Of a DNA stretch of 34,060 nucleotides, positions 15,755-32,803 are shown in pieces. The notes under the pieces were generated by a model. That model saw nothing but the letters and a program-made list of their open reading frames with translations, did not search any database and was not told the origin of the DNA. A program made the translations under genes and the position numbers. The DNA comes from Bacteroidota bacterium (lineage in GTDB: Bacteria; Bacteroidota; Bacteroidia; CAIKAF01): assembly GCA_016866335.1 (NCBI GenBank), contig VGMT01000025.1:1-34060 (forward strand), given 5' to 3'. Numbering within the stretch: the stretch's first letter is position 1; every line of letters starts with the position of its first letter.

Positions 15755-15787
15755 CCTTTTAAAGGAGTTTTCTGTAAGAATGATTTG

Positions 15788-15928
15788 GGCGGCAGCCGGG
15801 CTTTCACCGTTTGTCCGCGGTGGCCGTGTTTGGGCCCAGCCGGCTTGCGTGGGCTCCTAAAGTCGCCTCCGCGCCTGGCGGGCCCAGCCACGCCCACCTT
15901 GCGGGCAACCCGGTTCAATCCCTGCCGC
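15788..15928 (+). repeat. R1 hairpin element, copy C
   Basis: This 141-bp element begins GGCGGCAGCCGGGCTTTC and ends TTCAATCCCTGCCGC, with the core GGCTCCTAAAGTCGC at 15852-15866 in the exact centre. The arms (GGTGGCCGTGTTTGGGCCC and GGGCCCAGCCACGCCCACC) are complementary to each other, yet differ from those of copies A, D and E. It starts 34 bp after the stop of the membrane-protein gene. Confidence 0.85.
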
Positions 15929-16469
15929 AGCGCGCCCTGCCTAGAACAATGTTCCGATTCCAATTAGGGCATGTGGGTCCAGGCCCCCGACCACTACTTC
16001 GATGTAGAATCAGCGCAGTTTTAACATAATAAATAAAAACCTACTCAAAACCTACCCAAAGGCATTGGGCCCTCTTTTTCGACCCAGATCAAACTTAGGC
16101 CAAAACGAACAATCCAAAGGGTGGGGAGCTAGGACCTTGAGCGTTCAGGTAAAAGGGTAACCCCAAAAGCCCTAAGTGTTCATTTGAAAGAGTGATTCTA
16201 TGTTTGTGCAAATGTGAGCAACGCTAAACCTAGGCTCTCACTTTATGCATTTAGTTATTGAAGGCTTTCTTTTGACGATTTGTTAAAAATCAGTACATTT
16301 AATATCACGCATTAAGCCTTCGCCTATATAACCAAAGCGGCAGATTGGGGAGGTTTAATAGGGGGTATAAATGAGTTGCGCTCAAGGCTAAATGACGATA
16401 ACCAAACAAAAATTGACTGTCTGAAAGCATAAAAATCCTAATTCAAAGAACGATTAGACAACAATAAAA
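15929..16469. other. Gene-free stretch before the toxin-antitoxin cluster
   Basis: No convincing gene, RNA or terminator was seen in these 541 bp. Composition drops from GC-rich next to the repeat to AT-rich near the PIN toxin. It may hold decayed coding sequence and the promoter of the toxin operon, but no clear TAnnTTTG box with spaced TTG was found. Confidence 0.5.
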
Positions 16470-16934
16470 GTGAAACAACGATTATATATAGACACATCCG
16501 TTTTCGGTGGTCATTTTGACGAAGAGTTCAAAGACCATACTATTCCTCTTTTTCACAGAATTAAAGATGGAGAATTTATTGTTATTTACTCGACAGTTAC
16601 TCAGGACGAACTTGAAAACGCACCCGAAAAAGTAAAAGAACTTGTAAAAAGTCTCAGAGCTGACCTGACAGAGTTCATTGAAACAACAGAGGAAGCTATT
16701 GACTTGGCGACCGAATACATTTCTGAAAATGTTGTGGGACAAACAAGTTATGCAGACTGCTTACACATAGCTTTAGCGACAATAAACCGTGCAGACTTTT
16801 TGGTTAGCTGGAACTTCAAACACATAGTAAACCTTGAAAGAATAAGAGGCTACAACTCTATCAATATTAAAAACGGCTATAAGCAATTAGAAATACGTTC
16901 ACCAAGAGAATTTGAAAAATATGAAGACGACTGA
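16470..16934 (+). CDS. PIN-domain toxin (VapC-like RNase)
   Basis: This 154-residue protein fits the PIN nuclease fold. Acidic active-site candidates are Asp8 (LYIDTSVFGG), Glu47 (TQDELENAP), Asp96 (SYADCLHIALA) and Asp109 (RADFLVSWNF), in the usual order for VapC-type RNases that cleave tRNA or mRNA. The DTSVFGG opening and DFLVSWNFKHI ending match a PIN subgroup known from Bacteroidota and cyanobacteria. The start is GTG at 16470; no in-frame ATG would keep Asp8. A 50-residue basic or helical protein follows with a 14-bp overlap and is the likely antitoxin. AT-rich composition differs from the neighbouring core genes, which suggests acquisition. Confidence 0.85.
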   Translation: MKQRLYIDTSVFGGHFDEEFKDHTIPLFHRIKDGEFIVIYSTVTQDELENAPEKVKELVKSLRADLTEFIETTEEAIDLATEYISENVVGQTSYADCLHIALATINRADFLVSWNFKHIVNLERIRGYNSINIKNGYKQLEIRSPREFEKYEDD

Positions 16935-17073
16935 AAAAACATTTGACGCTGTAAAATTTATGCGTCAACAGCGGGATAAACTGAGTGAGAAGTTATCTAA
17001 GATGACAAAAGAAGAAATTTTAGAATACTTCAAGAAACGCAATGCACAGACGACAATAAAGCCCAGTGCATAA
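16921..17073 (+). CDS. Small probable antitoxin partner of the PIN toxin
   Basis: This 50-residue product starts MKTTEKTFDAVKFMRQQRD and ends KPSA. Its start overlaps the PIN gene by 14 bp, so the two are co-translated, in toxin-first order. The pattern KTFD-VK-MRQ...L..MTKEEILEYFKKR matches, from memory, the tiny partner proteins seen next to PIN toxins of this subgroup. It would fold as helices, with a C-terminal EEILEYFKKR helix likely to bind the toxin. There is no recognisable DNA-binding domain, so self-repression is not obvious. Confidence 0.75.
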   Translation: MKTTEKTFDAVKFMRQQRDKLSEKLSKMTKEEILEYFKKRNAQTTIKPSA

Positions 17074-17083
17074 TAGCGCGCAA

Positions 17084-17133
17084 GCGTCATAGCCCTGCCC
17101 CCGCTTATACGGGGCAACACAGGGCTACGATCG
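17084..17133. other. Nested inverted repeat downstream of the PIN module
   Basis: An outer pair TAGCCCTG (17090-17097) and CAGGGCTA (17120-17127) encloses an inner hairpin CCCCG-CTTATA-CGGGG (17099-17114), with looser pairing outside. No T-run follows, so a simple terminator is doubtful. It could be an RNA hairpin or a recombination site. Confidence 0.5.
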
Positions 17134-17439
17134 CCTACACGCAAAAACGTTACGGGCATGTTAAACAGACATAGCAAACAAAAGTCCATAATACGGGTTT
17201 GACAAAAGTTACGGATCAGTGCTACGCAAACATATTTGTGTTAAGTCAACCTTTGGGTATCCGCATCAATCCCGCAGTTTCGGGATGGTGAAAATCGCCA
17301 CCTTCGCCAAGCATTTGCCATATCGGAGTTTGGTCCGCTTACAGAAAAGGAAATACGCGAATGCAAACGTGTAAACCGTGAAACATTTCCTGATTAAAGG
17401 GCAGCTGCAAACACACCTCAAACCGTCCTAAACCCGCGC

Positions 17440-17535
17440 ATTTAACACTTAAAACTATCTTGCGCCGGGTTGCTGTAGTGCGAATAAAATGAGCAACTAT
17501 GACTGGCAATTGGGGTTGAAATGGAGTTGTTAGAC
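17440..17535. other. Imperfect palindrome with attC-like layout
   Basis: The outer pair is TTTAACACTT (17441-17450) with AGTTGTTAGA (17525-17534). The inner pair is GTTGCT (17469-17474) with AGCAAC (17492-17497). The outer boxes fit the loose RYYYAAC and GTTRRRY forms of integron attC sites, and the length near 95 bp is in range. No integrase is present. This is suggestive only. The rest of the 533-bp gap 17074-17606 shows no supportable gene. Confidence 0.35.
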
Positions 17536-17606
17536 GAACTGACGTTTGTGGCAATGGCCCGTTTGCAGGCACTTAAAAAGATTATTGAAAATCTTATATT
17601 TACGTT

Positions 17607-17900
17607 ATGAATTTAGACAACTCGACTTTAGACGCAATCAAGGAATACTTTAGAACTCGACCCGTTCTTAAAGCATATTTGTTTGGTTCTTATGTGAGGG
17701 GACAAGCAGACAACCATAGCGATATTGATATTTTAGTCGACTTGGATTATTCTCAAAGAATCGGTTTGGGATTCGTTCAGATGCAAATTGATCTTGAGAA
17801 AATGCTGAAAAAGAAGGTAGACCTAGTCTCTTCAAACAGCCTTTCAAAATATATAAAGCCACTAGTTGACAACGAAAAGAAACTGATTTATGCGCGGTAG
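17607..17900 (+). CDS. MNT-domain nucleotidyltransferase (MntA-like antitoxin), first copy
   Basis: This 97-residue minimal nucleotidyltransferase carries the GS-x10-DxD motif intact as GSYVRGQADNHSDIDILVD, the catalytic signature of MntA. In type VII systems MntA adds AMP to its HEPN partner and so silences it. The C-terminal half (IGLGFVQMQIDLEKMLKKKV then DLVSSNSLSKYIKPLV) is typical. Its stop overlaps the start of the next reading frame, a HEPN gene that is frameshifted and truncated. It therefore appears to be an antitoxin without a working toxin, unless it acts on the second HEPN encoded 450 bp downstream. AT-rich. Confidence 0.88.
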   Translation: MNLDNSTLDAIKEYFRTRPVLKAYLFGSYVRGQADNHSDIDILVDLDYSQRIGLGFVQMQIDLEKMLKKKVDLVSSNSLSKYIKPLVDNEKKLIYAR

Positions 17901-18071
17901 ATTAGGAGATGTTGCTCGATTGAAACACATCCTCGATTCAATTGTCGAAATAGAATCCTATCTAATAGACACTGATTATGAAGCATTCTTAAAAATTCAA
18001 TGATGAGATTTGCTTGCACCTATTTGCAAAATGCTCAAGGCCCTGAACAACTAAAAAAAGTGTATCTTTAA
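17890..18071 (+). pseudogene. Frameshifted and truncated HEPN toxin remnant
   Basis: From the ATG at 17890 the frame reads MRGRLGDVARLKHILDSIVE and on to YEAFLKIQ, then stops at 18001. That is the usual opening of a HEPN (DUF86) toxin. Moving one frame over near 17992 restores the family sequence KNSMMRFACTYLQ, after which it diverges and stops at 18069-18071. Normal members run about 110-115 residues with a late RxxxxH motif, which is absent here. The gene therefore has a frameshift and has lost its catalytic half. It overlaps the upstream MNT gene by 11 bp, as an intact pair would. Confidence 0.8.
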
Positions 18072-18074
18072 ATA

Positions 18075-18356
18075 ATGATAACTCCACAACAGGAAAATAT
18101 AATTAAAACTGTTACCCAAAGGGTTAAGCCTACTTTTATTGGGGTGTTCGGCTCTTATGCTCGTGGAGAAGAGCATGAAAAGAGTGATCTTGATATACTT
18201 ATCGATTTTGAAATGAAGGTTGATCTTCTTGAGTTAATTGGGTTGGAGCAAGAACTTTCTGAACTACTTGGTATCAAGGTAGACCTGGTTACTTTGCGCT
18301 CGGTAAATGCATCCCTAAAGCCATTTATTGAATCGGATTTAATCAGGTTGGTTTGA
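18075..18356 (+). CDS. mntA: MNT-domain nucleotidyltransferase (MntA-like antitoxin), second copy
   Basis: This 93-residue protein has an intact GS-x10-DxD motif, GSYARGEEHEKSDLDILID, needed for transferring AMP to the HEPN partner. The tail (LIGLEQELSELLGIKVDLVT) follows the family pattern. Its TGA overlaps the TTG start of the HEPN gene, so antitoxin and toxin are coupled in the standard order. The start codon lies 4 bp after the HEPN remnant. TATCTTTA at 18063-18070 resembles a -7 promoter box, but no spaced TTG element is clear. It differs enough from the first MNT gene to be a separate acquisition or an old duplication. Confidence 0.9.
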   Translation: MITPQQENIIKTVTQRVKPTFIGVFGSYARGEEHEKSDLDILIDFEMKVDLLELIGLEQELSELLGIKVDLVTLRSVNASLKPFIESDLIRLV

Positions 18357-18700
18357 AAAAAGATCCAATTATTTATATAGAGCACATCGATTCATGCATT
18401 TCCAGAATAAAAGAATACACGGAAGGGATTGATGAAGATGGTTTTTTAAAGAACAATCTGATTCAAGACGCCGTAATCAGAAACTTTGAAATCATTGGTG
18501 AAGCAGCTAAAAAGTTAAACGATGATTTCCGTGCAAAGTACTCAGAAATTGAATGGAAGAAGATCGCAGGGATGAGAGATAAATTAATCCACGATTATAT
18601 AGGCGTTGACCTTTGGGCTGTATGGGGAGTTGTGGAGAATATTATTCCTACACTTAAAACTCAAATTGAAGATATTATTAAGAAAGAAAAAGGCCTCTAA
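18353..18700 (+). CDS. hepT: HEPN-domain toxin (HepT-like RNase)
   Basis: This 115-residue HEPN (DUF86) protein has the R-x4-H-x-Y motif complete in GMRDKLIHDYIGVD. The Arg and His form the RNase site, and the Tyr is the residue modified by MntA in characterised type VII systems. The upstream part (DAVIRNFEIIGEAAKKL) is the usual core helix. The start is a TTG overlapping the stop of mntA. All key residues are present, so this pair is probably active, unlike the broken HEPN just upstream. No further gene is evident in the 204 bp that follow. Confidence 0.9.
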   Translation: MKKDPIIYIEHIDSCISRIKEYTEGIDEDGFLKNNLIQDAVIRNFEIIGEAAKKLNDDFRAKYSEIEWKKIAGMRDKLIHDYIGVDLWAVWGVVENIIPTLKTQIEDIIKKEKGL

Positions 18701-19828: not shown

Positions 19829-20040
19829 TTTTTATTGATACTGAGAGTATAACATTCGGAAACCCATAAAGTTCGGCGCCACTCCGATTGGGAGTTCAGA
19901 AGCGGGTTGGCCATTCGAATGAAAAAGCTCAAAGCAAGCGCCGCGATTAAAAAAATCAAGGCAAAAATCCAGCAGGGAATTTGAAAAAACGGCTCCGCAA
20001 CCGCCCCAACGCCGCCCGCGGCAGGGATTGACGAAGCCAC
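19825..20040 (-). CDS. Possible small membrane protein, start inside a repeat
   Basis: This doubtful 71-codon frame is reported because its TGA overlaps the next gene's ATG (ATGA). It also encodes one strong membrane segment (IPCWIFALIFLIAALALSFF) followed by a polar tail ending SINKK. The only start is a GTG at 20040, inside R1 copy D, so the first eight or so codons come from the repeat. Either the repeat has replaced the original 5' end of a small gene, or the frame is chance. Confidence 0.3.
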   Translation of the reverse strand: MASSIPAAGGVGAVAEPFFQIPCWIFALIFLIAALALSFFIRMANPLLNSQSEWRRTLWVSECYTLSINKK

Positions 20041-20162
20041 CCCGCAAGGTTGCCGAAGCCTGGCCCGCTCGGTGCGGAGGCGACCTTGGGAGCCCCCGCA
20101 AACCAGCTGGGCCAGCCTTTCGGCAACCGCGGAGTAGCTCGGAAAGCCCGGCTGCCGCCACC
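19996..20162 (-). repeat. R1 hairpin element, copy D, with shared flank
   Basis: The 142-bp element proper is 20018-20159. It has the core GGCTCCCAAGGTCGC (plus strand 20080-20094) at its centre and complementary arms. Together with a 22-bp flank (CGCAACCGCCCCAACGCCGC and two more bases), the 167-bp block matches 27071-27237 at all but two positions by my reading, in the same orientation. Confidence 0.88.
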
Positions 20163-20293
20163 CTAAAAGTTCTTTAAAGTCCAGCTGAAATTAACCAGAT
20201 AAAAAGGCCTAAAACCGCGGCACACCTTTGAGGCCGCGTTGCCAAAATGAAGCTGCTTAGAAAAAATGATTGAAATTTGCATAAAATAAGCAC

Positions 20294-20797
20294 ATGAATG
20301 AGATTGCCTTCACCAAAGTGAAATTGCCCTTCGGCTGGCTAGGAAACATGGCTCCCTACCCTATTGCCTACAGGGATAAAACGTGGAGAACCACCGAAGC
20401 TCTTTTCCAAGCCCTACGCTATGAAGATGAAGAAATTCAGGAGTTGATTAGAAAAGAGGCCTCGCCAATGGGATGCAAATTTCGGGTAAAAGCCATTGTA
20501 AAGGATTTAACCCAAAGGGGCGAAATGCATAAGCGGGTGGTTGAGCCATTATCAAAACAAGATTTGGAAAACATGGAGCTCTGCATCCGGCTCAAAGTCC
20601 AACAACATCCCTTTTTATTGAAGCAGCTGCTTTTGACCCGTGATTTGCCGATTTACGAGGACGCCACTTCTCGGGGAAAAAGAGGTTCTAACCTATTTTG
20701 GGGTGCCATGAAAACCCCCGATGGCTGGATAGGTGAAAATGCGTTGGGGAAAATTTGGATGAAGGTTAGGGAAGAGGAGGCAGGGAAAAAACCCTGA
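20294..20797 (+). CDS. NADAR-family protein (YbiA-like ADP-ribose-linked N-glycosidase)
   Basis: This 167-residue protein matches the NADAR fold. It opens with FGWLGNMAPYPIAYRDKTW, continues TTEALFQALRYEDEEI and ends with NLFWGAMKTPDGWIGENALGKIWM, the family's conserved N- and C-terminal motifs. Members hydrolyse the glycosidic bond of riboflavin intermediates, and some remove ADP-ribose from guanine in DNA, counteracting DarT-type toxins. No DarT-like gene is visible next to it. Other candidate roles are metabolite repair or NAD-linked defence. It starts the AT-richer accessory block just after R1 copy D; the next gene lies 184 bp downstream. Confidence 0.85.
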   Translation: MNEIAFTKVKLPFGWLGNMAPYPIAYRDKTWRTTEALFQALRYEDEEIQELIRKEASPMGCKFRVKAIVKDLTQRGEMHKRVVEPLSKQDLENMELCIRLKVQQHPFLLKQLLLTRDLPIYEDATSRGKRGSNLFWGAMKTPDGWIGENALGKIWMKVREEEAGKKP

Positions 20798-20981: not shown

Positions 20982-21893
20982 ATGTTAGACTTTATTGGAG
21001 ATATTCACGGACATGCCGATAAATTGGAGGCCTTGCTTCAAAAAATGGGGTATGAAAAACAAAACGGAACCTATAGGCACCACGAAAGAAAAGCCTTGTT
21101 TCTTGGAGACTACATTGACAGGGGCCCTAAAATCAGAGAGACGCTTGAAATAGTAAAAGCCATGGTGGACGAAGGGCATGCCACGGCCTTAATGGGGAAT
21201 CATGAATACAATGCCATATGCTTCAATTTTGAGGGGAAAAAGGGCGGACATCTTAGGAAACATTTAATAAAAAACATCGTACAGCATTACGAAACCCTTC
21301 AGCAGTTTCATGGAAGTCAGGGTGAATACGCGTATTATTTAGACTGGTTCAAGACATTGCCATTGTACGTAGAAACAAATGAATTTAAGGCCGTTCATGC
21401 GTGCTGGGACAACAAACACATTGGTTTGTTAAAGCATACATTAAACGAAGGTCGGCTTACCGACGATTTAATTTACCAATCTGCAATGGAGGGAAGCGAC
21501 TTTTATAATGCCGTAGATCAAACCCTGAAAGGGAAAGAACTAACCATGCCCAATGGTCTGCATTTTTTCGATAAAGAAAAAAACAAAAGAACGGAGATAC
21601 GAATAAAATGGTGGGAAGACCCGACAAAAATGACCTACAAGGCCATTAGTGTCGAAAACTTAGAAATGTTACCTGAGACGCCTATCCATTTAGGGGAATT
21701 AACCTCGCTGGACTTTTACCCAACCCATGAGAAAATCGTTTTTTTTGGGCATTATTGGCTTAACGGGCAGCCCGAATTTTACAAGCACAACATTTGCTGT
21801 TTGGACTACAGCGTCGCCAAAGGAGGCAAACTTGTGGCCTACCGATTTAATGGGGAAGGCCAATTGGATGCGAACCACTTGGTGTATGTTTGA
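20982..21893 (+). CDS. PPP-family metallophosphatase (calcineurin-like)
   Basis: This 303-residue phosphoesterase has the PPP metal-site motifs in order: DFIGDIHGHADKLEALL (GDxH, Asp7 and His9), LFLGDYIDRGP (GDxxDRG near residues 41-47) and LMGNHEYNA (GNHE near 72-75). A later FFGHYWL histidine is near residue 255. Such enzymes cleave phosphoserine or phosphothreonine, diadenosine tetraphosphate (ApaH-like) or RNA-end phosphates. The insert between GNHE and the final motifs (about 130 residues) is longer than in ApaH, so I call the family only. It lies between NADAR and the metalloprotease; a functional link with NADAR is possible but unproven. Confidence 0.85.
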   Translation: MLDFIGDIHGHADKLEALLQKMGYEKQNGTYRHHERKALFLGDYIDRGPKIRETLEIVKAMVDEGHATALMGNHEYNAICFNFEGKKGGHLRKHLIKNIVQHYETLQQFHGSQGEYAYYLDWFKTLPLYVETNEFKAVHACWDNKHIGLLKHTLNEGRLTDDLIYQSAMEGSDFYNAVDQTLKGKELTMPNGLHFFDKEKNKRTEIRIKWWEDPTKMTYKAISVENLEMLPETPIHLGELTSLDFYPTHEKIVFFGHYWLNGQPEFYKHNICCLDYSVAKGGKLVAYRFNGEGQLDANHLVYV

Positions 21894-21983: not shown

Positions 21984-22955
21984 ATGGAAGTAGAACACAA
22001 AATGAGACAAATGGAAATAGAGTTAACAGAATTGTTAATTCAAATTTTCAAAGACCATGGCTGGGAAATCGATAACCTGCCCTCTATTTATGATTCAGAT
22101 GAAACACCTGTCGAAAATCAAGATTGGGATTTTGATCGTTTTTTAGGCGTTTATGAACAAACAAACGGCACTTGGTGTGATGTTGGCAAGGTTATTTTAT
22201 ATCCGAAAAATATTGAAAAGGTAGCAAAGGCATTTTATGAACACGACCAACTATTAAACGTTAATAAAGGGCAGAATAAAAACCTAAAAGAAGGTGAGGT
22301 ATTCCAAAAATCAAACCTGCTTGTATTTCTGCAAGAAGGAGGAAGAACGCCCGATTATGGGGTTAAACTTGAAGACGCGATTGATTTCTTAACGGCAATT
22401 GTGTTAATTCACGAGCTCACCCATTGGATGATTCATTGGAATAGAGATTTTAATGGTATAGCATTAAAATGCAATTTTAATTATGACAATGATGAAAATA
22501 AAAAATTTCACGAAGGTATTGCCCAGTATTTCACAGATAATACCATTAGAAAATTGGGGATTGAAAAAATGATTGCTTTGTTCGAATTTTTAAAACAAAG
22601 GCAATCAAATCCGTACAGGGTTTTTGAAGAATTGAAAACGGATTTGGATGGACACGAGATTAATGTTGCATGTGTTTTCACCGCTTTGGGGGTATGTTGG
22701 AATAATAATTTTAATCAGTTATTTAATGAATTAAAAAACTATAATTATCTCTCGGTACTTTATTTTCCTGAAAATCATCAAAATTCTTATCCAAAAATTG
22801 TTCAAAAAGAGCCCGCCATTGATCAGGCTAAAATAATCGATTGGTGGTACATTAAACCATTCTCAGAATCCAATATTTTTTTGTACGATTACTTTGATCC
22901 TGAGAATAAGTCGAAATATAAAACACGTTATAATTCAAGAAAATTTGGAATTTAA
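21984..22955 (+). CDS. Putative zinc metalloprotease (HExxH), soluble
   Basis: I do not recognise a named family. The 323-residue product has the zincin motif HELTHW (His143, Glu144, His147) within VLIHELTHWMIHWNRDF. Thirty residues later it has FHEGIAQYF (Glu177), a plausible third zinc ligand in the gluzincin arrangement. There is no signal peptide or membrane segment, so it acts in the cytoplasm. The N-terminal part is acidic and helical, and the C-terminus is rich in aromatic residues. The next gene, a GIY-YIG-like nuclease, begins 12 bp after its stop, so the two are almost certainly co-expressed. Strong AT bias marks both. A protease that processes or regulates a partner nuclease is an inference. 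Confidence 0.75.
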   Translation: MEVEHKMRQMEIELTELLIQIFKDHGWEIDNLPSIYDSDETPVENQDWDFDRFLGVYEQTNGTWCDVGKVILYPKNIEKVAKAFYEHDQLLNVNKGQNKNLKEGEVFQKSNLLVFLQEGGRTPDYGVKLEDAIDFLTAIVLIHELTHWMIHWNRDFNGIALKCNFNYDNDENKKFHEGIAQYFTDNTIRKLGIEKMIALFEFLKQRQSNPYRVFEELKTDLDGHEINVACVFTALGVCWNNNFNQLFNELKNYNYLSVLYFPENHQNSYPKIVQKEPAIDQAKIIDWWYIKPFSESNIFLYDYFDPENKSKYKTRYNSRKFGI

Positions 22956-22966
22956 ACTTCAACATT

Positions 22967-23761
22967 ATGATACTAAAACATCCTCCAGTTATTGACTCAA
23001 ACGGCATCCTTTCTAAAAATCCATTCAACGACTTTGACCCATCCAATCCTGCGCATTATCCCCAAGGAGCGGGAGTTTACATCTATGGCATTAAAGTGGA
23101 AATTGATCGCGAAACAAAATTTGTTCCACTCTGCGTGGGAGAAAGTTCAAACCTAAGAAAACGAATATATAACGATCATTTTCAGGGGAAATTCTTAACT
23201 AACCATAATAATCTTACCGCAACTCAACCAAAGACCATTAAGGAAAGGAAAGAGCTTTGGGATTTTTCAAAAAAATCTATGAGCATATTAGAAATATCCA
23301 AAATATACTGTGATTTGCGGATGTATATGGAGGTCAATAAAGGAAAAAAAAGAACTACTAGAGAACACATGTTGAAAATAAATCAATTGAAATATCTGAT
23401 TTACTTTCAAAACGAAAATTTCTTTAACGCGAAATATGGCCATGCTCACCAAATGAATCATAAAAACATTTCTGCATCAGAAGCATGCCAGTTATTCCCT
23501 TCAAGCAACCTTCAAATAAGTCCAACCTTAGCCAACTTTGTTTCCAATTTCTATTTTGTCTATGCTGATGACATGGATGCTGAAATAGCAAATCTCTCGA
23601 ATCCAGAGGATCGCTTGAATATTGAAGTAAAACTCAACCAAGCACTAATTGATAAATATGGGCTTTACACCACTGCGGATAAAAAAAGAAAAGGCCGAGA
23701 TTTTGCTGTTGATTTTGATTTTTCATTAATCGAAAAGAAAATGGTCAACCTCACCATTTAA
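22967..23761 (+). CDS. GIY-YIG-like endonuclease
   Basis: This 264-residue protein shows the GIY-YIG pattern in its first third. GAGVYIYGIKV (residues 34-44) stands for the GIY strand and FVPLCVGESSNLRKRIYND (52-70) for the YIG strand with the catalytic Arg region. The second motif reads CVG rather than YIG. The remaining domain is helical and charged, with a basic patch KGKKRTTREH (about 125-134) and KKRKGRDF near the end. A late acidic residue that could hold the metal is in NIEVKLNQALIDKYG. The family assignment rests on motif reading alone. It forms a tight pair with the upstream metalloprotease. It has no targeting signal and is AT-rich. Confidence 0.7.
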   Translation: MILKHPPVIDSNGILSKNPFNDFDPSNPAHYPQGAGVYIYGIKVEIDRETKFVPLCVGESSNLRKRIYNDHFQGKFLTNHNNLTATQPKTIKERKELWDFSKKSMSILEISKIYCDLRMYMEVNKGKKRTTREHMLKINQLKYLIYFQNENFFNAKYGHAHQMNHKNISASEACQLFPSSNLQISPTLANFVSNFYFVYADDMDAEIANLSNPEDRLNIEVKLNQALIDKYGLYTTADKKRKGRDFAVDFDFSLIEKKMVNLTI

Positions 23762-23880: not shown

Positions 23881-26109
23881 TTGCAATCCTTGAATGCCTT
23901 TACCCATTATAACTTCCCAGCCAAGGTTAGAAAGTTCGCCATCCAAAAGGCGTCTTTAAAGGTATTTATTGCCAAATATGAAGGAATTGTACCTTGGTCA
24001 AAAGGGATTAAGAACGAAGCCGACCTAACAGCGTACATCGCACAGCAGTTGCTGCCCGCGTTGTATTCCCGTTGTTCCCTTTTGGGAGATATTCATAAGG
24101 AAAAGACCTACTTTGTTAAAGCCAATCATGTGGATTTAGAAAACCATTACAGAACGGCTCTGGAGCAGGAAGCTAACGAGGTGGCATTGTTGAGGGAACT
24201 TGAAAAACATCAAGGAACTGCTGCTGCCGTTGCCGAATTATGCCGTCAAATCAACCAAAAGAAAAGCGATGCATTTCAGCTTTGGATTAAGCTTATGTCC
24301 AAGCATTTTCAAGATGACCCTGCCTTTGTGTTTCTAATGCTGCATCCCATTTTCCAGACATCCCCTTTTGGTTCTAGGCGGATTCTAAGTGAACCTAGCC
24401 TAAGCATACTACAGTGGTTGCACCTTCAACTTGAAAAAGAAAGCATTTACCCAGGATTCAATCTAAGCAAACTTTACTTCATAAAAGAAGCTTTTGGAAT
24501 TTCTGAAATTAAAAGAAACGGCTGGCAAATGATTCCTAGGGGTCGGAAAAATTCAAGAATGCTTTGTGCTGCTGCGCGTGGAAGTGGTTGGTGTGTTGCC
24601 TCCTATAGCATGGCTCAATTTTACCTGGAAAGGTTTTCTTTTTACATCCTTTGGTCCGACAGCAAACCGAAGGCGGCATTGCGCGTATCTAATAAAACCG
24701 TTTACGAATACGTTGGAGTAAACAATTCATTTCCAGAGGAATGGATGCACGACATTTCTTTATTCTGCTCGGAAATGGATTTGAACTATACGCCAGAAAC
24801 TTCCATTTCCTTTGAAAACAAAGACATTAATTGGTGGAAAAATCGGATTCGATACTGGCCGTTGGCCTACAACCAAATGCCGGAAGAAATAAAAATACGT
24901 TTCGGGAAAATTAATCGCGTTGATTTATATTCTTTGGTCACCTTTTTTTCTACCTCTGAAATAGAAAAAAAGGTTAACATCAAATTTGAGTTTGAGGATT
25001 ATTTTGAAATAATCACCCTTTACCCGGAACTCTATACATCAAACATTCAGTGGGAAGGCTCAATTGAAGAAACAGAGGCGCTGAAGGTTGCTTGGCTTCA
25101 ATCCTGGATTGGTAAGCTAACCCATCAAGCCTTTACCCTGGCAGAAATCAATGCCATGCCAGAAGAAGTAAAAAAAACAAAGGCTTTTACAGATTGCATT
25201 GGGCAACTCTTCGAATCGCATATTTACCGTAAACTTATCCGGATTCCAAAGTCCCGTGATGAGCGGGCGTATCCATTAAAAATGGACGACCTACTTCCTT
25301 ACGAAGAACACGAACCAATCGGCCAAACCTATAGCAGGGCAGCTATGGTTTTAATTCAAAATCAAACCACCGAATTCGGAGACCGTATTTTTCCAGATTT
25401 TTTAAACAGTAGAAGCGATTTTAATGAAATAAGACAACAAGCCTGGGCAAAAGCCCTGGAGGCTCGGCCTAGTTTGCGCCTGGCACTCCCACAAGATCTT
25501 GCCTCACTCAAAATGTTTGCATTTAAGAAAGTCCGCTACCCTGCTTTGAAGGTAAAGGATTACTGCCGTAAATTAAAAGAAAAACCCTGGATGCTCGACA
25601 GCAAAACAGGAGGGATCCCAGCTGCCTTCAAGCAACAAGAGATAGCTTTAAAGGCATACCTAACAGGCTGGGATGCCATTATTAGAAAAAACCCTCATAG
25701 GTTATGGGTTCAGTTTGGCCGTTTCGGAAGCAGAACGTATTTACCGTCAGCTGCCTTAAGGAACAAACAAATCGTAGATGCTTTTTTCTATGGATTTAAA
25801 ACAGCCATGGCAAAAAAAACCGACCCATGGAAGTCGCTTACCCCAAATACCCGCTCCAAACCAGAAATTGCATTGGCTTTTCTGATGGCTATCCACAACA
25901 GCAACAAGCCATTACTTAAAAAGAGGTACTTCGTTGAAAATTCGGAAGTGCTTGAACACCTCCCCGACGGAGAAATTAAGGATATCATCAAGAAAACAAT
26001 CAAAATTGGAGCCAACTTTTTTTTTCAGGCTTTTATGGAAAACAAATTGCCGCTTTCAAATCCCTTTTCAGACTTTACAATTGATTTAGAACAAGCAAAC
26101 CTTGCCTAG
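23881..26109 (+). CDS. Large uncharacterised protein with a PcfJ-like WCV patch
   Basis: The function of this 742-residue, largely helical protein is unknown. Its most telling segment is near residues 232-290. GSGWCVASYSMAQFYLERFS is followed by a strand, KPKAALRV and EYVGVNN. This is the order seen in PcfJ-like proteins (C-V, Y, then a G/N-containing strand), which occur on plasmids and phages. The other regions show no catalytic motif that I can name. The start is uncertain: no in-frame ATG occurs near the front, so I use TTG at 23881; another TTG lies at 23890. TTATTTTG just before and across the first codon looks like a -7 box, so the message may be leaderless. There is no signal peptide. 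It is the largest gene of the accessory block. Confidence 0.7.
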   Translation: MQSLNAFTHYNFPAKVRKFAIQKASLKVFIAKYEGIVPWSKGIKNEADLTAYIAQQLLPALYSRCSLLGDIHKEKTYFVKANHVDLENHYRTALEQEANEVALLRELEKHQGTAAAVAELCRQINQKKSDAFQLWIKLMSKHFQDDPAFVFLMLHPIFQTSPFGSRRILSEPSLSILQWLHLQLEKESIYPGFNLSKLYFIKEAFGISEIKRNGWQMIPRGRKNSRMLCAAARGSGWCVASYSMAQFYLERFSFYILWSDSKPKAALRVSNKTVYEYVGVNNSFPEEWMHDISLFCSEMDLNYTPETSISFENKDINWWKNRIRYWPLAYNQMPEEIKIRFGKINRVDLYSLVTFFSTSEIEKKVNIKFEFEDYFEIITLYPELYTSNIQWEGSIEETEALKVAWLQSWIGKLTHQAFTLAEINAMPEEVKKTKAFTDCIGQLFESHIYRKLIRIPKSRDERAYPLKMDDLLPYEEHEPIGQTYSRAAMVLIQNQTTEFGDRIFPDFLNSRSDFNEIRQQAWAKALEARPSLRLALPQDLASLKMFAFKKVRYPALKVKDYCRKLKEKPWMLDSKTGGIPAAFKQQEIALKAYLTGWDAIIRKNPHRLWVQFGRFGSRTYLPSAALRNKQIVDAFFYGFKTAMAKKTDPWKSLTPNTRSKPEIALAFLMAIHNSNKPLLKKRYFVENSEVLEHLPDGEIKDIIKKTIKIGANFFFQAFMENKLPLSNPFSDFTIDLEQANLA

Positions 26110-27070: not shown

Positions 27071-27237
27071 CGCAACCGCCCCAACGCCGCCCGCGGCAGG
27101 GATTGACGAAGCTACCCCGCAAGGTTGCCGAAGCCTGGCCCGCTCGGTGCGGAGGCGACCTTGGGAGCCCCCGCAAACCAGCTGGGCCAGCCTTTAGGCA
27201 ACCGCGGAGTAGCTCGGAAAGCCCGGCTGCCGCCACC
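27071..27237 (-). repeat. R1 hairpin element, copy E, with shared flank
   Basis: The element proper is 27093-27234, with its core at 27155-27169 in the centre. It differs from copy D at two positions over 167 bp, including the 22-bp flank, and lies in the same orientation. Together they bracket about 6.9 kb. It lies between the small membrane gene and the surface-glycan operon. Confidence 0.88.
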
Positions 27238-27261
27238 ATTAAAAAATCCTAAAAGGCTATG

Positions 27262-30800: not shown

Positions 30801-31112
30801 GTAGCCAGGCCATGCGCAACCATTCCTGCATTCGTGGCTGAATTATCGGCCAAGGTTGGTTTACCTAATTTATCCACGACCAGGTTTGTAGCCAGGCATG
30901 CGCAACATTCGTGCATTCGTGGCTAATTTATCCGCGTCTAGGTTGGTATGGCTAATTTATCCACGACCAAGTTTGTAGCTAGGCATGCGCAACATTCGTG
31001 CATTCGTGGCTAATTTATCCGCCCAAGGTTGGTATGGCTAATTTATCCACGACCAGGTTTGTAGCCAGGCATGCGCAACATTCGTGCATTCGTGGCTAAA
31101 TTATCCGCGTCT
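30801..31112 (+). repeat. Tandem array of the 87-bp repeat (R2)
   Basis: Three full units start at 30801, 30888 and 30975 (87, 87 and 86 bp), and a partial one at 31061. Each begins GTAGCCAGGC, continues ATTCGTGCATTCGTGGCTAA and holds two copies of GGCTAATTTATCC. The first unit is the most diverged. It lies after the heptose kinase gene, in a 630-bp stretch with no gene. Confidence 0.9.
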
Positions 31113-32372: not shown

Positions 32373-32438
32373 TGCCGTTCCATTTTCGTTTGGTTCCACA
32401 AGGTACAGATTTTCCAGGGGTGTTTTTTTGAAAAGGGG

Positions 32439-32580
32439 GGCGGCAGCCGGGCTTTCCGGGCAAGTCCGCGGCCCGAAGCGGGGCAGTGCAGGCCCCGCAG
32501 TAGCTCCTAAAGTCGCTCTGCGGGTCGCTGCCTGCCAGCCGCTCCCGGCCTTGCGGGCTTGCCTCGTCAATCCCTGCCGC
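32439..32580 (+). repeat. R1 hairpin element, copy F
   Basis: This 142-bp element has ends GGCGGCAGCCGGGCTTTC and GTCAATCCCTGCCGC. The core AGCTCCTAAAGTCGC lies at its centre (32502-32516). The arms (CCGCGGCCCGAAGCGGGGCA and the facing right arm) are complementary but share little with other copies. It begins 67 bp upstream of the ABM gene's start, in the promoter zone of that minus-strand gene. Nothing else is seen in 32581-32803. Confidence 0.83.
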
Positions 32581-32803
32581 GGTGGCCTGAACCGCCTCAG
32601 GGTCGCCGAAAGCAAACAAGTAGGAAAAAATAATATTGACCTTAAATTCAGCTCCAAACAAAAAAAACAAGCCTCAGGGATAAATCCCAATTTAAATTTT
32701 TGTAGCGAAAAAACAACTAAGTACAGAAATATCCTATAATAAAATTTTTTAAACGAGTGATTTGAGGTTACTAATTATAAATTTTTATAGAGGGAAGAGG
32801 GGG

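What the first reader, a model, noticed from the sequence alone, without database searches (positions are those of the whole stretch)
21984..23761. Tight metalloprotease plus GIY-YIG-like nuclease pair
A soluble HExxH protease with a plausible third ligand is followed after 12 bp by a nuclease-like gene with a variant CVG second motif. Both are strongly AT-biased, in an accessory block. Pairing a protease with a nuclease is a logic used by several defence and abortive-infection systems. I know of no described system with this exact pair, but cannot search.
Basis: partly seen in the sequence, partly recalled or inferred. Interest (0 to 1): 0.62.

Follow-up and report, generated by a model that had tools for sequence, protein, structure and literature searches.

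The report
NADAR-linked metallopeptidase with swappable partner genes
A bacterial metal-dependent protease gene, followed 11 bases later by a nuclease-like gene, belongs to a previously unnamed protease family that repeatedly sits beside genes for removing ADP-ribose from nucleic acids, which hints at an undescribed bacterial conflict or defence gene cluster, although the protease-nuclease pair itself is not conserved.

Summary
Both genes are real and tightly spaced (11 bp). The first is a soluble HExxH protein. The zinc motif H143-E144-x-x-H147 and a downstream Glu (E177) are invariant in 11 aligned relatives, a gluzincin-like signature. The second has a convincing GIY-YIG N-terminal half (GVY...CVG..SNLRKR). 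Profile support for that half is weak, the canonical catalytic Glu is not located, and both structure predictions failed. The pairing is not conserved: none of the other 16 zincin loci found has a GIY-YIG gene next to the zincin. What recurs is different. In a 200-genome panel of a related family, 6 of 16 zincin loci lie within 1.7 kb of a NADAR (ADP-ribosyl-guanine hydrolase) gene, where 0.07 are expected. The window itself carries NADAR, a Pnkp/PrpE-like phosphatase, the zincin, the GIY-YIG gene and a 742-aa protein whose four other relatives each lie within 0.2 kb of a NADAR gene. Zincin relatives also sit by SIR2-like, NucS-like, IetA-like, SLOG and restriction-modification genes. Best reading: an accessory NADAR-linked conflict cluster in which a regulated zincin has exchangeable partners, here a nuclease-like one. 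That the zincin activates the nuclease is plausible but untested.

The parts
20294..20797 (+). NADAR (YbiA-like ADP-ribosyl hydrolase) gene, 167 aa
   Evidence: Pfam PF08719 E 8.4e-13, above cut-off; 45-47% identical to NADARs beside zincins in other genomes
20982..21893 (+). PPP-type metallophosphoesterase, 303 aa, nearest the phosphatase domain of Pnkp and PrpE
   Evidence: Pfam Metallophos E 1.4e-15; NCBIfam bacter_Pnkp partial match E 5.9e-22 and PrpE 2.6e-17, both far below the equivalog cut-offs
21984..22955 (+). Zincin, 323 aa, no signal peptide seen by eye; member of a newly delineated family
   Evidence: 47% identical full-length relative in L005; 16 of 200 panel genomes carry the family
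22410..22424 (+). HELTH, residues 143-147 (zinc ligands H143 and H147, catalytic E144)
   Evidence: invariant H143, E144, H147 in A3; sequence
22512..22514 (+). E177, putative third zinc ligand in HEGIAQ
   Evidence: invariant in A3
22967..23761 (+). GIY-YIG-like nuclease candidate, 264 aa
   Evidence: weak Pfam GIY-YIG E 0.039; fragmentary relative L006; local match to an annotated GIY-YIG protein, 45.8% over 24 aa
23072..23080 (+). GVY, residues 36-38 (first GIY-YIG motif)
   Evidence: conserved in L006
23132..23164 (+). CVGESSNLRKR, residues 56-66 (second motif and candidate catalytic Arg66)
   Evidence: VGES.NL.KRI conserved in L006; aligns with IGKSINLKKR of an annotated GIY-YIG protein
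23881..26109 (+). 742-aa protein of unknown fold, NADAR-linked family (TTG start as listed)
   Evidence: 28-30% identical to 4 proteins of 750-851 aa (A4), each within 0.2 kb of a NADAR gene

Best explanation
The window holds an accessory, probably horizontally acquired NADAR-linked conflict cluster (NADAR, Pnkp-like phosphatase, zincin, GIY-YIG-like protein, 742-aa protein). NADAR most likely strips ADP-ribose from guanine bases or small ADP-ribose products, acting as the reversing or immunity arm. The zincin is a cytosolic gluzincin-like metallopeptidase that is the regulated executioner or processing enzyme of the locus. The slot next to the zincin takes different partners in different genomes: a small 123-146 aa protein, a NucS-like nuclease, a SLOG protein, or an IetA-like AAA ATPase nearby. 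Here the partner is the GIY-YIG-like protein, most simply a nuclease effector that the zincin cleaves or otherwise controls. Shown: family, motifs and co-location. Inferred: NADAR activity, zincin substrate, nuclease activity and the defence role.
For: Zincin within 1.7 kb of NADAR in 6 of 16 panel loci (expected 0.07, naive P about 1e-11) and again in the window. L062 was fetched for its NADARs and only then found to carry a zincin. Genome-level co-occurrence is 9 seen against 2.6 expected, P 1.2e-4. The 742-aa relatives lie beside NADAR in 4 of 4 other loci. N-terminal extensions on some zincins (L055, L062) are shared or found stand-alone elsewhere. Zincin L096 sits between a SIR2-like gene (E 1.6e-9) and a NucS-like gene (PADLOC PDC-S11 E 1.2e-114), gap 43 bp to the latter. 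IetA-like AAA genes sit near the L059, L093 and L095 zincins. A very distant zincin, L097, lies inside a type I restriction-modification operon. The zincin and nuclease are absent from the 15 nearest genomes apart from one very distant zincin in G011. NADAR antitoxin function is published (PMC11125620).
Against: Some of the six co-located genomes are close relatives, so independent events number perhaps three or four. Ten of 16 panel zincins are not beside a NADAR. No ADP-ribosyltransferase is recognised in the window. Zincin control of the nuclease is unsupported by conservation. The catalytic Glu of the GIY-YIG domain is not located. No fold was confirmed. There is no phage, plasmid or viral-contig relative of the zincin or nuclease. 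No experiment was possible.
Confidence: 0.42

Rival explanations
1. Dedicated two-gene system: the zincin is the activating protease of a gated GIY-YIG pro-nuclease, as trypsin-like and caspase proteases are for MBL-fold nucleases in Hachiman, AVAST and canu loci.
For: 11-bp gap and same strand; second case of a zincin directly followed by a nuclease gene (NucS-like, L096, gap 43 bp); published mechanism for other protease-nuclease pairs (PMC12799240).
Against: No other zincin has a GIY-YIG partner; the nuclease relative L006 has no zincin upstream, its downstream side being lost at the contig end; the catalytic Glu is unassigned.
Confidence: 0.2
2. Accretion: an AT-rich accessory island of independently acquired genes, so the protease and nuclease are neighbours by chance and act separately (for example a lone restriction-type nuclease and a housekeeping-like peptidase).
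For: The pair is not conserved; the region also holds toxin-antitoxin-like genes and dispersed repeats; other intergenic gaps in the block are 90-184 bp.
Against: NADAR, zincin and the 742-aa family recur together in L055, and zincin-NADAR proximity is far above chance; the 11-bp gap suggests co-transcription.
Confidence: 0.28
3. Peptide-processing module: the zincin cuts C-terminal tails of partner proteins and of itself to release a signal, like the zincin and FxSxx-COOH precursor pairs of actinobacterial conflict systems.
For: In 5 NADAR-linked loci the zincin is followed at once by a small protein; zincins and small proteins share [KR]F[GC] tails; precedent in PMC7159879.
Against: The motif was chosen after inspection; the window has no small protein and its GIY-YIG protein lacks the tail; no radical-SAM partner seen.
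Confidence: 0.1

Closest known systems
Nuclease-protease pairs of Hachiman, AVAST, Lamassu, DRT and canu loci (PMC12799240)
   Same: a protease gene next to a nuclease gene in accessory or defence settings; exchangeable modules
   Different: there the protease is trypsin-like or a caspase and the nuclease is MBL-fold, and the pair is recurrent; here zincin and GIY-YIG-like, seen once
DarT1-NADAR and YarT-YbiA toxin-antitoxin systems (PMC11125620)
   Same: NADAR of the YbiA type in an accessory locus
   Different: no ADP-ribosyltransferase recognised in the window; zincin and 742-aa protein are not described partners in the papers found
Zincin and FxSxx-COOH peptide-processing systems of VMAP and FtsH ternary conflict systems (PMC7159879)
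   Same: zincin-like metallopeptidase next to a small diverging protein with a conserved C-terminal tail, in conflict gene clusters
   Different: different tail, no radical-SAM gene, different phylum and partner set; homology of the zincins not tested
IetAS
   Same: AAA ATPase (IetA-like by PADLOC profile) near a protease gene in the L059, L093 and L095 relatives
   Different: from memory the IetAS protease is subtilisin-like; here a zincin; the window has no AAA gene
Pfam GIY-YIG (PF01541) and LEM-3-like GIY-YIG (PF22945)
   Same: GVY and xVG...NLxxR motifs
   Different: below family cut-off; longer motif spacing; catalytic Glu not located

Membership tests
Zincin (HExxH metallopeptidase), gluzincin-like | HExxH motif conserved among divergent homologues | tested here: met
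   H143, E144, H147 invariant in A3, 11 sequences
Zincin (HExxH metallopeptidase), gluzincin-like | conserved downstream Glu as third zinc ligand | tested here: met
   E177 invariant, 30 residues after H147
Zincin (HExxH metallopeptidase), gluzincin-like | zincin fold | tested here: inconclusive
   AlphaFold2 pLDDT 35.8; only single relatives touch Zincin_1 (E 5.6e-4) and MPTase-PolyVal (0.088)
GIY-YIG nuclease | GIY and YIG motifs with downstream Arg | tested here: met
   GVY36-38, CVG56-58, R66; kept in L006, aligned with annotated GIY-YIG proteins
GIY-YIG nuclease | score above the family cut-off | tested here: not met
   14.7 bits against 22.6
GIY-YIG nuclease | catalytic Glu after the motifs | tested here: inconclusive
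   no Glu at the expected place before ..LIYFQNENFFN; several Glu elsewhere
GIY-YIG nuclease | GIY-YIG fold | tested here: inconclusive
   AlphaFold2 pLDDT 34.7
Protease-activated nuclease pair | recurrent adjacency of the same two families | tested here: not met
   0 of 16 other zincin loci have a GIY-YIG partner next to the zincin
Protease-activated nuclease pair | protease cleaves and activates the nuclease | not testable with these tools
   needs purified proteins
NADAR (YbiA) | profile match above cut-off | tested here: met
   49.3 bits against 35.1 for window 20294-20797
DarT-NADAR or YarT-YbiA toxin-antitoxin | adjacent ADP-ribosyltransferase | tested here: not met
   none of the neighbouring window proteins scanned matches an ART family; an ART-like reading of genes in L059-L062 is by eye only and had no profile support

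The most novel reading that the evidence does not exclude
A new conflict system built round NADAR and a regulated zincin, in which the zincin activates or releases exchangeable partners (small protein, NucS-like nuclease, GIY-YIG nuclease), linking nucleic-acid ADP-ribosylation to proteolytic switching.
Probability: 0.2. Interest if true: 0.8.

Novelty: new variant of a known kind. Interest (0 to 1): 0.5.

Why it matters
NADAR enzymes are widespread and most bacterial ones are stand-alone with poorly understood roles (PMC11125620). A protease family that recurrently sits beside them, with partners that change from genome to genome, would make one of those roles directly testable. It would also widen the protease-nuclease pairing logic from trypsin-like and caspase enzymes to metallopeptidases. 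None of the papers found in the library searches describes NADAR paired with this zincin family or with a GIY-YIG gene.

Tried and rejected
Conserved zincin-GIY-YIG pair: rejected, no second case. Mobile cassette bounded by the 173-bp direct repeats at 19996 and 27071: not special, since the repeat occurs at about 40 places in the genome. 742-aa protein as a divergent PcfJ: profile comparison gave probability 0.3%, so only an eye resemblance; true PcfJ genes do lie beside other NADARs. R.HinP1I relation of the nuclease: Pfam E 0.0073, below cut-off, treated as chance. Nuclease against two other GIY-YIG proteins by hhalign: uninformative, profile too shallow. Solved-structure sequence searches: nothing useful. 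Viral, phage and plasmid searches for zincin and nuclease: nothing. Small protein fused at the end of the L062 zincin: not supported by profile. Structure prediction: both models too poor to search; the prediction tool's stated list of allowed sources did not include loci from whole-genome searches, so the richer zincin alignment was not submitted.

Full report
OBSERVATION. Two + strand ORFs lie at 21984-22955 (323 aa) and 22967-23761 (264 aa), separated by 11 bases. Both are AT-rich (GC 0.324 and 0.350) inside a region of 0.32-0.49 GC running from about 16 to 27 kb, between flanks near 0.5. Neither passes a cut-off in Pfam, NCBIfam, PHROGs or PADLOC, and neither has a useful sequence match in the PDB.

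THE PROTEASE. The only close relative found in 84,980 species genomes by pattern scan is L005, 47% identical over the whole length. A two-sequence profile then found eight divergent members in 200 genomes of the family of L005's host, and an eleven-member profile (A3) found 16 in the same panel. Invariant positions are L72, I77, L141, H143, E144, H147, W148, E177, A180, Y211 and L217. H151 is nearly invariant but absent in L052. The fold was not confirmed: AlphaFold2 with two sequences gave pLDDT 35.8.

THE NUCLEASE-LIKE GENE. The GVY and CVGESSNLRKR motifs are kept in one fragmentary relative at a contig end (L006). That fragment's three weak plasmid matches include two genes annotated as GIY-YIG nucleases, and one of these aligns with the window protein over ETKFVPLCVGESSNLRKRIYNDHF at 45.8%; both have Pfam GIY-YIG signal, one above cut-off. 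The N-terminal half is therefore probably a GIY-YIG domain. The catalytic Glu could not be placed, so activity is uncertain. Single-sequence AlphaFold2 failed.

IS THE PAIR CONSERVED? No. L005 has no GIY-YIG gene beside its zincin, and its genome shows none of this nuclease (the latter without a positive control). None of the other zincin neighbourhoods has one in the partner position. In a 395-genome class sample the nuclease was found outside its own genome only as the L006 fragment, plus three marginal matches judged chance, and in none of the phylum sample beyond its own genome.

WHAT RECURS INSTEAD. The zincin neighbourhoods L053-L057 contain NADAR genes, as does the window at 20294-20797. 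I searched NADAR (PF08719) in the same 200-genome panel: 32 genomes were above the cut-off. Six of 16 zincin loci have a NADAR within 5 kb (observed distances 0.4-1.7 kb) against 0.07 expected, naive P about 1e-11. Genomes with both number 9 against 2.6 expected, P 1.2e-4 (one search printed a wrong NADAR-positive genome count, corrected there). The genomes are related, so these P values overstate independence; at least three locus types are distinct (L053/L054; L055; L056/L057; L062 perhaps a fourth). L062 was fetched for its three NADARs and only then found to encode a zincin. The window's 742-aa protein has four relatives (28-30% identity), all within 0.2 kb of a NADAR gene. L055 holds zincin, small protein, UDG-like gene, NADAR, 851-aa relative and NADAR together.

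PARTNERS OF THE ZINCIN. Directly behind the zincin lies a 123-146 aa protein in L053-L057, a NucS-like PD-(D/E)XK gene in L096 (gap 43 bp; PADLOC PDC-S11 E 1.2e-114), and the GIY-YIG-like gene in the window. Before it lies a SLOG/DprA-like gene in L005. An IetA-like AAA gene is near it in L059, L093 and L095. A very distant member, L097, sits inside a type I restriction-modification operon. A SIR2-like gene precedes the L096 zincin. Some members carry extra N-terminal regions; the roughly 90-aa region before the zincin in L055 is shared with L062 (sequence), and the outermost region of L062 resembles a stand-alone gene in L061. Nucleic-acid repair enzymes recur near NADAR: the Pnkp/PrpE-like phosphatase in the window and an ATP-dependent-ligase-like gene in L053. 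NADAR association with RNA repair has been noted before (PMC9503650).

MECHANISM. Shown: genes, motifs, family, co-location. From published knowledge: NADARs remove ADP-ribose from guanine and act as antitoxins (PMC11125620); proteases can activate partner nucleases in phage defence (PMC12799240); zincins process small partner proteins in some conflict systems (PMC7159879). Inferred: the zincin is a regulated cytosolic executioner or processing enzyme of a NADAR-linked conflict cluster, with exchangeable partners, and here the partner is nuclease-like. I put 0.42 on this, 0.28 on chance accretion, 0.2 on a dedicated protease-activated nuclease pair and 0.1 on tail processing.

COMPARISON. It works like known protease-nuclease pairs at most by analogy; it fails the recurrence test for that class. 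It is not a DarT-NADAR or YarT-YbiA module as far as tested, since no ART is recognised in the window. I rate it a new variant of a known kind, interest 0.5.

Noticed in passing
window 19996-20168, 27071-27243; diverged copies 15787-15930, 32433-32582: GC-rich dispersed repeat of about 145-173 bp, about 40 places in the genome including several in this window; two 98% identical direct copies flank the accessory block.
   Followed up: partly
window 30847-31112: Three tandem copies of an 86-93 bp unit, 86-95% identical to the reference copy.
   Followed up: no
window 16470-18700: Toxin-antitoxin-like genes: a PIN-like ORF at 16470-16934 (by eye), a solitary MNT nucleotidyltransferase at 17607-17900, and an MNT-HepT pair at 18075-18700.
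   Followed up: partly
L063 4067-6477, L065 3292-5550, L067 3950-6157, L069 6011-10141: PcfJ-like genes recur beside NADAR genes in the panel; in three loci the gap is under 0.25 kb.
   Followed up: partly
L059 2252-2896, L060 6517-7161, L061 10824-12029, L062 9963-11180, L092 5467-6111, L093 4843-5487: A 214-405 aa family with a WHVT...GL motif that looks ADP-ribosyltransferase-like by eye, near NADARs or zincins; no Pfam or PADLOC support.
   Followed up: partly
window 21984-22955; L005 8001-8933; L053, L054, L055: Zincins and the unrelated small downstream proteins share a C-terminal [KR]F[GC] tail; motif chosen after looking.
   Followed up: partly
L067 6509-7279: A LEM-3-like GIY-YIG gene (Pfam 48 bits) lies about 350 bp from a NADAR gene on the same strand.
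   Followed up: partly
L100 7953-8450: A 595-kb uncultured phage encodes a NADAR 49% identical to the window's; none of the other profiled families is nearby.
   Followed up: yes
L097 2955-3929: A distant zincin-like gene sits inside a type I restriction-modification operon, with a weak Peptidase_M13 match.
   Followed up: partly
L058 9603-10385: ADP-ribosylglycohydrolase gene (Pfam E 6.8e-32) about 3 kb from a zincin relative.
   Followed up: no
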